Made by a program: the position numbers and the translations under genes. The notes beneath the pieces were generated by a model that saw nothing but the letters and a program-made list of their open reading frames with translations, was not told the origin of the DNA and ran no database searches. A stretch of DNA of 64,000 nt, from the NCBI GenBank assembly GCA_030059675.1, contig JANVYQ010000001.1:1-64000 (forward strand), read 5' to 3'. Below, piece by piece: positions 36,858 through 40,377 of the stretch; the first letter of the stretch is position 1, and each line of letters opens with the position of its first letter. Source of the DNA: Candidatus Pelearchaeum maunauluense. Its GTDB lineage: Archaea; Thermoproteota; Nitrososphaeria_A; Caldarchaeales; Caldarchaeaceae.

Positions 36858-37034
36858 CTAACTCTCAATACTTTCTTGGGAAAACCTCTCCAGCCTACGA
36901 ATCTCAGCGTATCCAATCTCCGTGTCTCGTTTCTTATAACAGTCAAGATCAGCCGTATGGTCTTGCGACGTCATTAAACGCTCACCCATCGGGAAGAACA
37001 TTAGCTCTTCCTGGTCGAAATAATCTGTTAAGTG
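36858..37034 (-). pseudogene. C-terminal part of a split hemerythrin HHE gene
   Basis: On the minus strand the frame reads HLTDYFDQEELMFFPM, then GERLMTSQDHTADL and ends at TAG 36858. The His followed by an acidic pair and FFP is the last iron-ligand helix of HHE hemerythrin domains. The N-terminal part (40377-39991) stops at ELLR, exactly where this piece should follow. The two halves are separated by ~2.96 kb of unrelated DNA. No start codon or promoter is attached to this piece, so it is not expressed as a gene. Confidence 0.75.
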
Positions 37035-37071
37035 GAGACTCTAACCATGTTTGTTATGAGTGGTGTTAATG

Positions 37072-37080
37072 TTTATATAA
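37072..37080 (+). promoter_or_regulatory. Putative TATA box of the coiled-coil gene
   Basis: TTTATATAA is a near-perfect archaeal TATA box ending 24 nt before the TTG at 37105, implying leaderless transcription. Confidence 0.5.
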
Positions 37081-37104
37081 GTGATTGTATATTAGATTGA
37101 TTGC

Positions 37105-37368
37105 TTGGCTTCTAAGATTCCTTCTTGGATTCAGAAGTTTCTTCTGCCCGAGCTTGAGTCTGTAAAGGGCGAGCTTAAAGCGATTAACACTCGTATAGAG
37201 GAACTTGACAAGAGGATTGAAAGACTTCGTAATGAGATGATAGCCCGGTTCGAAGCTGTAAATAGTCGGATAGACTCTCTTGATAAGAGATTGGATGTTG
37301 CGGAAAGACTTGCAGTAATCGAGGCTAAGCTGAGAGAACATGATGAGATCCTGGAAAAGATAGCATAA
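37105..37368 (+). CDS. Small coiled-coil protein (87 aa)
   Basis: From the TTG at 37105, residues 17-87 have repeating heptads with Leu/Ile at a and d and many Glu/Lys/Arg (ELKAINTRIEELDKRIERL, SRIDSLDKRLDVAERL), so it is a long parallel coiled coil. Short proteins of this kind are common in thermophilic archaea and have no assigned function. It is the first gene inside the insert that splits the hemerythrin gene and has its own TATA box. Confidence 0.75.
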   Translation: MASKIPSWIQKFLLPELESVKGELKAINTRIEELDKRIERLRNEMIARFEAVNSRIDSLDKRLDVAERLAVIEAKLREHDEILEKIA

Positions 37369-37520
37369 AACCTAAAACAAGTTATTACTAATTTTCACAT
37401 TATAGATCAATTAAAACCCGCTCTACCAAGTTTCTTATGTTTGGCGTTTATCTGCTTCATTTCTTATGCATGTGGGGTTCCGTTAACTTATTGTTGGTAT
37501 AAGTATAAATTACGTTTTGG

Positions 37521-37635
37521 GGATATGTGAAGTTTGCGATAGCAAATTTGGGCGAGCGCAGCGAAGCCACATATCCTCCTGCTAAGTGACCCTGATAGGG
37601 GCAAGGTGCGAAGCACCGCAGAGTGCCCGCCGTCG
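37521..37635 (+). ncRNA. Probable structured RNA of unknown family
   Basis: A GC-rich island inside AT-rich DNA folds well by eye. A perfect 9-bp stem joins GGATATGTG (37521-37529) and CACATATCC (37568-37576). It encloses a 7-bp hairpin (37531-37537 with 37542-37548, loop GATA) and a short GGC/GCC stem. A second domain has GGGCA (37599-37603) pairing with TGCCC (37624-37628) around a perfect GGTGC/GCACC hairpin (37605-37617). Several GCGA-rich loops occur. No protein frame fits. It is not recognisable as tRNA, 5S, SRP or RNase P RNA. Strand is not certain, because stems are symmetric; + is assumed. Confidence 0.5.
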
Positions 37636-37705
37636 CCACATTCACTCATTTCTACCATCTCCTATGAGTTTTACTTGATAATCTTTTCAAGAAAGATGAC
37701 TTTAA

Positions 37706-38600
37706 CAAACAGGAACCGAAATTATAAAACATCTTTATTTTGAAATTTTAACAAAAATAAAAATCTGTGATAATGTTTGCGGTTCAGGGAGTTTTCTGAT
37801 TGCTGCTGGAGATGTTTTACTCAGATTATATAGCAGAGTTCTTAAAATATTAGAAGATAATCTTAGCGATGACAAAGAGGTCAAAGAAGTTTTAAAAGAC
37901 ACCAGGAAATCCCCAACTAGAACCTACTACATTGTTAGGCAAATAATTGTAAACAATCTTTACGGCGTTGACATAATGGAAGGCGCTGTTGAAATTGCTA
38001 AACTAGGATTTTGGCTCTGGTTAATTTCTCAGGTTAATCCAAAAAAAGTTGAGGATAAAAAATTGAAACATTACCAAACTTAGACTTCAACTTAATGGTT
38101 GGTAACACCTTGATAGGATTTGTTAATATCGAAGATGTAGAATCTGATCTTATACCAGTAAGACCTAAGAAAAAGCGGGAAAATCTTAAAACCAAACAAT
38201 ATTTAATAACCACATGGACTGATAAAGAGAAAACAAAATGGTTGAAAGAGCTGGCTAAATAAAAACAAAAATTCAAAACATTGCCTGCACAAGAAGCAGT
38301 TAAATTAAAAGAGGAGCTAAATAAAGATCTAGAAAAAGCAAGAGAAATTTTCAATGAAAAGTTCTACAATATGTTAAAGTCTAAAGGAATTAAGATTTCT
38401 AGGGAAGAATTTTTGAAATTAAAACCTTTCCACTGGGGATTTCGAGTTCTATGAAGTTTTCGCTTTAGAGAAAACAAAAGAAAGAGGGTTTGATATAATG
38501 ATTGGGAATCCTCCATATGGAAATACTTTGAATGAAATTGAAAAAATAACTACAAGGAATATATATAAATTCGAAAGTACTTTCCCGAACAAGGAATCGG
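37706..38600 (+). pseudogene. Eco57I-type DNA methyltransferase/restriction gene, wrecked
   Basis: Three frames must be joined to follow it. The first reads KICDNVCGSGSFLIAAGD, i.e. SAM-binding motif I (DPACGSGSF-like), then NNLYGVDIMEGAVEIAK. At ~38070 it shifts, then gives LPNLDFNLMVGNTLIG. A TAA follows at ELAK. Another shift near 38445 leads to RGFDIMIGNPPYGNTLNE, the catalytic N6-adenine methylase motif NPPY. The pattern is that of type IIG/Eco57I-like or BREX-type methylases. At least three lesions and lack of both ends show a dead remnant. It runs into the CRISPR relic at 38606. Confidence 0.75.
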
Positions 38601-38605
38601 TGCTA

Positions 38606-38691
38606 CCTTCAATTCTCTTTTTGAGGTTCTAGTTAAAACAGTGATTGTCCCGACGAGCGTTATCGTTCTTTCAATTCTCTTTTTGAGATTC
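38606..38691 (-). CRISPR. Two-repeat CRISPR relic (second repeat family)
   Basis: Two 24-nt copies at 38606-38629 and 38668-38691 differ at two positions and flank one 38-nt spacer. The consensus begins CTTTCAATTC and ends TTTGAGATTC. Its complement matches the well-known Thermoproteales repeat (GAATCTCAAAAAG then AGGATTGAAAG) except one base. It differs from the 25-nt repeat at 12.8 kb, yet shares the AATTGAAAG tag. No leader. The flanking genes are wrecked cas and methylase fragments, so it is a remnant. Confidence 0.8.
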
Positions 38692-38694
38692 ATG

Positions 38695-39184
38695 AAGATG
38701 TAAATCCATGTTCGCATGCTGAATTTATTATAACTGAGGAGATCCTTCCTGAGCTTATTGGGGGTTTAAGAAGAGGTGGAGAAGGAGCTTACCTCAAAGT
38801 CGTTAATGAATATTATGAAGAGTTATTGCCTGAGGTCGAAGATAAGGTGAAGAAAACGCAAAACTGTACAGAGAAAGCATTAGATAACCATGAATTCTTT
38901 TACCGCGTTAAAACATACTCTCCTGAAAAAATACTAGGCAGAGAGCTAAGTTGTTTAGCTATCCCTAAATGTTATGCCGATAAAGTGATGCAGCTTAGGG
39001 AGAAAATGAAACGCGAAGATTGTAGAAGAAAGAGAGAGTTATTGGCACGTTTGAAAGGTTACCTCATCTCTGTTCCTCATTATATAATCGAAAATGATGG
39101 AAGATGGGATGAGGAGCTCGGTCTTCCTATCGTCGGCCTTAAACGTTACACATATTCACCGCAAACAGGGCTTGTTAAGGGTTG
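38695..39184 (+). pseudogene. Fragment of a putative cas gene (Cas3-like C-terminus?)
   Basis: The frame is open from inside the CRISPR relic (reading through the second repeat) to TGA near 39184, with an internal TTG/ATG-type start at 38826. It reads AEFIITEEILPELIGGL, RRGGEGAYLKVVNEYYEELL, and ends LISVPHYIIENDGRWDEELG then LPIVGLKRYTYSPQTGLVKG. The LISVP and EELGLPIV..Y....GL pattern resembles the C-terminal end of Cas3 helicases of type I systems. The N-terminal helicase is absent. Location between a CRISPR relic and a cas6 remnant supports a cas origin; family is uncertain. Confidence 0.45.
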
Positions 39185-39208
39185 AAGTGATTTTCCCCAC
39201 TATATATT

Positions 39209-39361
39209 TTGGATGATGTCATAGACTGCTTTCGTAAGGTGAGCGACAGCGTGAATTACGATATTGTAAAGCCATATATGCCCTCTTCCAGTTATTTTTA
39301 TAAGCTCTGTATGCACTTTCACGCCGATGGCTTAAAAGCATATTCTGGATCGCTTATTTAA
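39209..39361 (+). pseudogene. Short reading frame between cas fragments
   Basis: A 50-codon frame from TTG 39209 reads LDDVIDCFRKVSDSVNYDIV and ends LKAYSGSLI. It could be a small remnant of a cas gene, but no motif proves this. It lies in the 240-bp gap between the Cas3-like fragment and cas6. Confidence 0.25.
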
Positions 39362-39421
39362 GGAATTTTTTATTGAAATATCTATGATTCACAGGTAGCT
39401 CTTCAATTCGGGTTTGAGGTC

Positions 39422-40039
39422 TTGCCAATCGATGTTCTGGGAATCCTGCTCGAATGCAGCTCTAATCTAAATCCCATTTACTTTTCAGGATTTCATCTTA
39501 GGGGGCTTTTCTATAAGGTTTTGAGGTCTTTTGACCCGGGTTTCGCTGGATGGCTTCATGGTTTTAGGGGTTTGGCTCCATTCTCTATCTCTCCTCTAAT
39601 GAAGATCGATTCAGGCACGTATATCTTCAGGATAACATCGTATTTGACCAAGCTTAGCGATGCCTTGATCAAGGCATTCTCCAAGACTGATGATGTTGAG
39701 CTATTGAATAGGAGATTTAGGGTTGTTGAGATCTCTTATAAGAGGTTGGATCTTGAGAGGTTTATGAGGGATTCCGTGCCTTATACGAGGTATGAGCTCG
39801 ACTTCCTATCCCCTACATGCTTTAGGAGACCATGCCCATATATCCCCCTCCACCTCATGGGATTCCTGGCAAGGATTATGAAGTTTATCGGTAGACCGAG
39901 ATCCCATTATAGGTTCCTGCCCCTGCCGGAGCCTATCCTAATGTTGAGAAATCTTAGGAGGCAGTGGCAGCAGTATGCTGGGTTTATGTGCTACCGTAGC
40001 AGCTCAATATACTCCCTGCATAGCTCTAGAACTTTATGA
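39422..40039 (+). pseudogene. cas6: Cas6 CRISPR RNA endonuclease, 3'-truncated
   Basis: Cas6 cuts precursor crRNA within repeats. The first ~188 residues fit the family: SGFHLRGLFYKVLRSFDPG, a YIFRITSYLT strand and RYELDFLSPTCFR, followed by PYIPLHLMGFLARIMKFIG. The C-terminal RAMP half ending in the Gly-rich GxGxxxxxGFG loop is missing. After RRQWQQYAGF the frame runs into DNA that belongs to the hemerythrin gene on the other strand (from ~39990) and stops at 40039. The 205-residue product lacks the RNA-binding loop and is probably inactive. It is the only Cas6-like gene in the window. Confidence 0.75.
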
Positions 40040-40377
40040 GCATCAACCCTACCTTCCTCATACTCTCTTATGGTGCTCTCTATCTGCCTAATGAGCGCCC
40101 TACCAGCCTCATGCTCCCTCAATATCACCTCAATAGGACCACCTGCGCGACGCATACCCCGCGTCTCAAAACAGGGCAACAAACAACCCTCCTCCTTCCC
40201 ATGATGGTATCTATCAACATAAACACTGCTGAACTCTAAGACCCTAACTATAAAACTAACCTCAATAGCTCTAGGAGAATTTTTCCAGAAGTTGATTCTT
40301 TCCTCTAAAGCATTTAGTATGCGCAAGATAAATGTATGCTCTCGCCTCAATTGTGTAGAGGGAGAGTCTTTACTCAT
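39991..40377 (-). pseudogene. Hemerythrin HHE-domain protein, N-terminal part
   Basis: This 128-residue piece starts at ATG 40377. It carries REHTFILRIL (first His ligand), YVDRYHHGKEEGCLLPCF (H-HxxEE helix) and LREHEAGRALI (third helix). It stops at ELLR followed by TAG, just before the last ligand helix, which is found at 37034-36858. Hemerythrin-like proteins bind a di-iron centre for oxygen or NO sensing. Without the last helix the metal site is incomplete. The stop codon comes at the insert boundary. Confidence 0.82.

What the first reader, a model, noticed from the sequence alone, without database searches (positions are those of the whole stretch)
36858..40377. Hemerythrin gene split by a ~2.96-kb defence-rich insert
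The N-terminal three helices end ...ELLR at 39994 and the fourth helix resumes HLTDYFDQEELMFFP at 37034, same strand, in the right order. The DNA between holds a coiled-coil gene, a likely structured RNA, and relics of a methylase, CRISPR repeats and cas genes. So a defined element entered this gene. No clear terminal inverted repeats or target duplication (only CAC shared) are visible.
Basis: partly seen in the sequence, partly recalled or inferred. Interest (0 to 1): 0.8.

Follow-up and report, generated by a model that had tools for sequence, protein, structure and literature searches.

The report
Hemerythrin gene broken by debris insert
In this archaeon an oxygen-binding-type protein gene was cut in two by a clean 3-kb insertion made of broken pieces of defence genes and of an integron gene cassette, whose recombination site is shared with distant archaea and bacteria; it looks like a dead patchwork of captured DNA, not a working mobile element.

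Summary
The split is real. A same-genus genome (G001) carries the gene uninterrupted next to the same neighbour; the window's two flanks join on it with no base lost. 'ELLR' ends at a separate CAG-to-TAG change upstream of the junction. The gene is a long-standing pseudogene: 20 amino-acid versus 15 silent codon differences from G001, against 4 versus 28 for the intact paralogue.

The insert is not a defined element. It is a mosaic: an intact small coiled-coil gene, a frameshifted type IIG methylase piece, two CRISPR repeats, a Cas3-like C-terminus and a cas6 cut off at the right junction. Related attC sites stand in same-strand cassette arrays in Archaeoglobus, Altiarchaeales and Caldiserica, and the closest copy, in an Aerophobetes bacterium, is 87% identical over 142 nt including the cassette gene's tail. 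A second attC R'' box lies 10 bp inside the left edge.

Neither end is an integrase-made junction or a terminal repeat, so end-joining capture of a ready-made patchwork is most likely.

The parts
36858..37015 (-). 3' part of the hemerythrin gene (rest of helix 4 and C-terminus, DQEELMFFP...QESIES*)
   Evidence: 85% DNA identity with uninterrupted gene in G001, L022 6250-6407
39982..40377 (-). 5' part of the hemerythrin gene (helices 1-3 and start of helix 4, ...ELLR TAG HIN); in-frame stop TAG at 39991-39993
   Evidence: Pfam Hemerythrin 6e-12; 84% DNA identity with L022 6406-6494, where the stop codon is CAG
37013..37015 (.). GGT at the left edge, also at the right edge (39981-39983): possible 3-bp target duplication or microhomology
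   Evidence: base-by-base comparison with G001
37016..39983 (.). the insert, 2,968 bp, a mosaic of fragments
   Evidence: absent from the same position in G001; flanks adjacent there
37025..37034 (-). CACTTAACAG, an attC R'' box 10 bp inside the left edge: probable truncated second attC
   Evidence: identical to the R'' of L075 and L111; the pattern CACTTARCAG occurs only here and in the attC in 64 kb, 0.26 expected
37105..37368 (+). intact 87-aa coiled-coil ORF with its own archaeal TATA-like box (37072-37079)
   Evidence: 80% identical to a gene in G040; DNA match starts about 40 bp upstream of the start codon
37476..37503 (-). about 27-nt block (TTATACCAACAATAAGTTAACGGAACC) next to the attC, shared with three other Thermoproteota attC sites
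   Evidence: L145, L146, L147
37504..37588 (-). integron attC site (R'' CACTTAGCAG; L'' GGATATGTG; L' CACATATCC; R' degenerate)
   Evidence: CM R1 81.4 bits, E 3.9e-20, only copy in the genome; relatives in tandem cassette arrays; covariation
37589..37650 (-). 3' tail of the cassette upstream of the attC (hairpin and last codons of the lost cassette gene)
   Evidence: with the attC, 86.6% identical over 142 nt to L075 of an Aerophobetes bacterium, up to the stop codon of its cassette gene
37735..38585 (+). frameshifted internal piece of a type IIG restriction-methylase (motifs CGSGSFL and GNPPYG)
   Evidence: PADLOC REase_MTase_IIG 4.5e-25; Pfam Eco57I, MmeI_Mtase; L033
38606..38629 (+). CRISPR repeat 1 (DR45 type)
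   Evidence: Rfam RF01354, 34.5 bits, below gathering score
38668..38691 (+). CRISPR repeat 2 (DR45 type), 38-nt spacer between the two
   Evidence: Rfam RF01354, 37.4 bits; identical repeats in G350, next to its cas6
38691..39185 (+). C-terminal fragment, probably of Cas3b
   Evidence: PADLOC Cas3b C-terminus, weak, E 0.005; no other hit
39407..39983 (+). cas6 truncated by the right edge (about 187 of 279-287 codons, open frame)
   Evidence: TIGR01877 4e-8; 74% DNA identity to G350 cas6 up to the edge; L028

Best explanation
The hemerythrin gene was inactivated by one clean insertion of a roughly 2.97-kb DNA fragment. That fragment was already a patchwork from a variable region: an integron cassette tail with its attC, a cassette-like segment carrying a coiled-coil gene, and decayed type IIG methylase, CRISPR, Cas3-like and cas6 pieces. 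It was probably joined at a double-strand break by end joining using the 1-3 shared bases GGT. It was not put there by an integron integrase or by a transposase acting on the element's ends. Since then the hemerythrin halves have drifted as a pseudogene; the coiled-coil gene, with its own promoter, may still be expressed. Shown: clean insertion, the exact edges, the attC identity, the fragment identities, relaxed selection. Inferred: single event, end joining, previous residence of the pieces in one defence/integron island.
For: Uninterrupted allele in G001 with adjacent flanks and no lost bases. Only GGT shared at the edges. No terminal inverted repeats. The right edge cuts cas6 mid-gene although full-length homologues of 279-287 aa exist. 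The left edge lies 10 bp outside an attC R'' box, so that attC is also cut. The attC is a genuine family member: arrays of single genes on one strand between the sites in three distant genomes and 20 of 25 pairs with two-sided changes, 0/500 shuffles as high. Relaxed selection: 15 silent/20 amino-acid changes versus 105/33 in the neighbour and 28/4 in the intact paralogue, Fisher p about 0.0003.
Against: No donor locus with the same order of pieces was found, so a single event is not proven. GGT could be a true 3-bp target duplication made by an unknown transposase. The truncated pieces could have arisen after the insertion, although that does not explain both edges being mid-feature. The relaxed selection could partly be in the G001 branch.
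Confidence: 0.55

Rival explanations
1. A larger genomic island (integron cassettes plus restriction-modification plus CRISPR-Cas) once sat in the hemerythrin gene and has shrunk by internal deletions and decay to the present scraps.
For: The methylase is frameshifted, the cas genes and CRISPR array are fragments fused to each other, the host gene is an old pseudogene.
Against: The edges against hemerythrin are exact and both fall inside features (cas6; attC R''), so the island would already have had mid-gene ends.
Confidence: 0.22
2. A non-autonomous or unrecognised transposable element with a 3-bp target duplication (GGT) brought the cargo.
For: Clean insertion with a possible 3-bp direct repeat.
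Against: No terminal inverted repeats, no transposase remnant, no second copy in the genome, right end inside cas6 coding sequence conserved with relatives up to the edge.
Confidence: 0.12
3. An integron integrase inserted a cassette circle into the hemerythrin gene at a non-classical target (attG-like G^TT).
For: An attC is inside the insert, and the target reads CCTGG|TTTATG, which contains G|TT. Such genomic insertions are reported for bacteria (Loot et al. 2024, known here only as cited in PMC12901181 and PMC11023631).
Against: Integrase insertion would leave a complete attC at one edge and a TTRRRY start at the other; the right edge is cas6 and the left edge is TCGAAATAATCTG followed by only an R'' box. 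The attC is 490 bp inside.
Confidence: 0.05
4. Assembly or binning artefact: a chimeric contig.
For: The genome is a draft of 21 contigs; reads cannot be checked here. The G001 contig also ends about 85 bp upstream of this site.
Against: A chimera would not restore both halves of one gene at adjacent bases, nor explain the excess of amino-acid changes and the TAG in the flanking halves.
Confidence: 0.05

Closest known systems
Integron attC sites / CALINs and archaeal integrons (Ghaly et al. 2022, PMC9668308)
   Same: R''-L''-VTS-L'-R' architecture, AAC/GTT core, folding into one covarying hairpin, single genes on one strand between sites in relatives, attCs shared between Archaea and Bacteria, Thermoproteota included
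   Different: A single site with no integrase nearby and a degenerate R' box, embedded in an unrelated mosaic; singletons were excluded from that survey
Defence islands with decayed CRISPR-Cas and restriction-modification genes
   Same: Methylase, CRISPR repeats, Cas3-like and cas6 pieces within 2.3 kb
   Different: All truncated, so none is expected to work; carried inside another gene
Hemerythrin-domain pseudogenes made by insertion
   Same: One gene, two halves, insert between them
   Different: The insert is not an IS element, intron or intein

Membership tests
Integron attC site | Conserved R''(..AAC) and R'(GTT..) ends and L''/L' boxes that pair | tested here: met
   Family of 26 sites: R helix 77%, L helix 85% paired, 20 of 25 pairs with two-sided changes, 0/500 shuffles as high (alignment is fitted to the model). 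The window copy itself has AGC and a degenerate R'
Integron attC site | Sites recur in tandem, same orientation, single genes on one strand between them | tested here: met
   In relatives: G303 four sites, G300 and G304 two to three per contig. Not in the window, where it is single
Integron attC site | Recombined by an integron integrase as folded bottom strand | not testable with these tools
   needs a recombination assay
Complete integron | IntI gene above the curated cut-off near the sites | tested here: not met
   No TIGR02249 match over cut-off in G000; only generic tyrosine recombinases, which also ring in all 14 control genomes
CALIN | At least two attC within 4 kb | tested here: inconclusive
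   One full attC plus an isolated R'' box 545 bp away
attG-type cassette insertion | attC ends exactly at one edge of the insert | tested here: not met
Insertion sequence / DNA transposon | Terminal inverted repeats and a transposase or multiple copies | tested here: not met
Group I/II intron or intein | Intron RNA family, or an open frame through the insert | tested here: not met
   No Rfam intron; stops in all frames
Functional CRISPR-Cas locus | Complete cas genes and array | tested here: not met
   Two repeats, C-terminal Cas3-like piece, cas6 cut at codon about 187

The most novel reading that the evidence does not exclude
Integron cassettes with one attC family circulate between Thermoproteota, Archaeoglobi, Altiarchaeota and deep-branching bacteria. 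The insert is a snapshot of a cassette array being torn and captured into a chromosome, with the single attCs and the shared 27-nt block in Thermoproteota marking an integron-like entry site of their own.
Probability: 0.2. Interest if true: 0.65.

Novelty: new member of a known kind. Interest (0 to 1): 0.42.

Why it matters
It shows how an archaeal gene was lost to a fragment patchwork, and it reveals an attC family common to several archaeal phyla and to bacteria. Archaeal integrons were described only in 2022 and single attC sites were left out of that survey, so relics like this one may show that cassettes reach Thermoproteota chromosomes more often than recorded.

Tried and rejected
RNA family for the structured segment: none in Rfam. 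Exact cassette bounded by GTTAAGTGG on the plus strand, with the coiled-coil gene as the cassette gene: rejected once the arrays showed that cassette genes run on the opposite strand. attG insertion: edges do not fit. Plasmid and phage relatives of the attC segment: none. Viral contigs: no attC match; two chance coding matches only. Phage match for the CRISPR spacer: none. Cas3-like fragment: no match at the chosen threshold in 121 relatives or in plasmids, only a non-significant PDB hit. Strict RYYYAAC/GTTRRRY scan misses most members of the family and finds only L075 among the attC-like sites, so the covariance model was used instead. L069 (Peregrinibacteria) is a chance match in what looks like coding sequence.

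Full report
Observation. The window holds a minus-strand ORF of 128 aa (39991-40377) that is a hemerythrin domain lacking its end, and downstream on the same strand the missing end. Searching 60 relatives with the first part found, in the same-genus genome G001, a contig (C35) that ends inside a hemerythrin gene. That contig (L022) has the same left neighbour, a pyridine-nucleotide dehydrogenase, at 85% DNA identity, and the hemerythrin reading frame runs straight through...LCREYIELIRQHINKEELMFFPMGERLM.... Blastn joins window 37015 to L022 6407 and window 39982 to L022 6406. The base-by-base table puts the junctions at 37015 and 39982, with GGT on both sides and no base lost.

Age. Compared codon by codon with G001, the hemerythrin halves differ by 15 silent and 20 amino-acid changes; the neighbouring dehydrogenase by 105 and 33; the intact hemerythrin paralogue on C20 (G001 C24) by 28 and 4. 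Fisher p is about 0.0003 in both comparisons. The gene has been drifting, which fits an old pseudogene and argues against an assembly artefact. The drift could in part be on the G001 side.

Anatomy of the insert (37016-39983, plus-strand order). (1) An intact 87-aa coiled-coil ORF with a TATA-like box about 26 bp upstream; the closest relative in G040 is 80% identical. (2) A hairpin-rich element, 37504-37588. (3) A frameshifted type IIG methylase piece. (4) Two DR45 CRISPR repeats with one 38-nt spacer. (5) A C-terminal fragment with a weak Cas3b match. (6) cas6, open from its start to the edge, where it is cut at the codons that read QYAG in full-length homologues of 279-287 aa. G+C ranges from 31% in the methylase to 45% in cas6, against 48-50% in the flanks. 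There are no terminal inverted repeats and no second copy.

The hairpin element is an integron attC. Its core was found in nine GTDB stretches, of which one (L069) is a chance match in what looks like coding sequence and one (L071) matches only the hairpin core. The rest are sites in Altiarchaeales, Aenigmatarchaeota, Archaeoglobus, Caldiserica, Aerophobetes and Methanomethylicota MAGs. A covariance model from six sites finds one copy in the window's genome, none in G001, and tandem same-orientation copies in Archaeoglobus JdFR-27, the Altiarchaeales MAG and the Caldiserica MAG. Between successive sites lie mostly one or two genes, on the same strand, each group followed by its site. Read in that direction the sites show R'' (CACTTAACAG, CATATAACAG, CGTATAACAG), L'' (GGATATGTG or GGATAAAAG), L' and R' (GTTATAT, GTTAGGC). 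On 26 sites 85% of pair cells form standard pairs and 20 of 25 pairs have two-sided changes, while shuffles give 12 and slid versions 6-10 (the alignment is fitted to the model, so it leans that way). The window copy reads on the minus strand. Its R'' is CACTTAGCAG and its R' is degraded. Together with the upstream cassette tail it is 86.6% identical over 142 nt to the Aerophobetes site L075. Archaeal integrons, and attCs shared between Thermoproteota and bacteria, are already reported (PMC9668308), so this is a new member of a known kind.

Ten bp inside the left edge lies CACTTAACAG, a perfect R'' box in the same orientation; the pattern CACTTARCAG occurs only there and in the attC within 64 kb, 0.26 expected. 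The stretch 37016-37503 therefore looks like a cassette whose attC was cut by the edge. The coiled-coil gene is antisense to the cassette direction, so its being the cassette's gene is doubtful. This point was noticed after the fact and is inference.

Mechanism. An integrase-made insertion would put a complete attC at one edge. Neither edge has one, and both edges cut features mid-way, so site-specific recombination most likely did not make this insertion. A transposon should have end repeats; there are none. What remains is joining of a fragment with already broken ends into a break in the hemerythrin gene, helped by 1-3 shared bases, or a shrunken island. No locus with the same order of pieces was found in 398 genomes of the phylum, although G350 holds both a close cas6 next to CRISPR arrays with the same repeat and a related attC, on different contigs. 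End-joining capture is preferred (0.55), the shrunken island second (0.22).

Verdict.

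Noticed in passing
L145 4817-4845, L146 3299-3326, L147 987-1014, window 37476-37503: Four Thermoproteota single attC sites from different families share a block of about 27 nt (TTATACCAACAATAAGTTAACAGAACC) directly after R'. It contains an inverted GTTA...TTAAC pair like a simple integrase site, and could be a common cassette start or an attI-like site.
   Followed up: partly
L111 (Archaeoglobus JdFR-27), L109-L110 (Altiarchaeales), L112-L113 (Caldiserica): Integron-like cassette arrays with one attC family in two archaeal lineages and a deep bacterial lineage.
   Followed up: partly
L126 (Aerophobetes G306 C126:28-240): N-terminal 71-aa piece of an integron-integrase-like gene (87.5 bits, below the curated cut-off) with one internal stop, at a contig end, in the genome that holds L075.
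   Followed up: no
window 39400-39420: TCTTCAATTCGGGTTTGAGGTC just upstream of cas6 resembles a degenerate DR45 CRISPR repeat.
   Followed up: no
G001 C35:22493: The G001 contig ends about 85 bp upstream of the insertion point inside hemerythrin, so its right neighbour is unknown.
   Followed up: partly
window 39209-39361: Short ORF of 50 aa between the Cas3-like fragment and cas6 with no match in Pfam, NCBIfam, PADLOC or PHROGs.
   Followed up: partly
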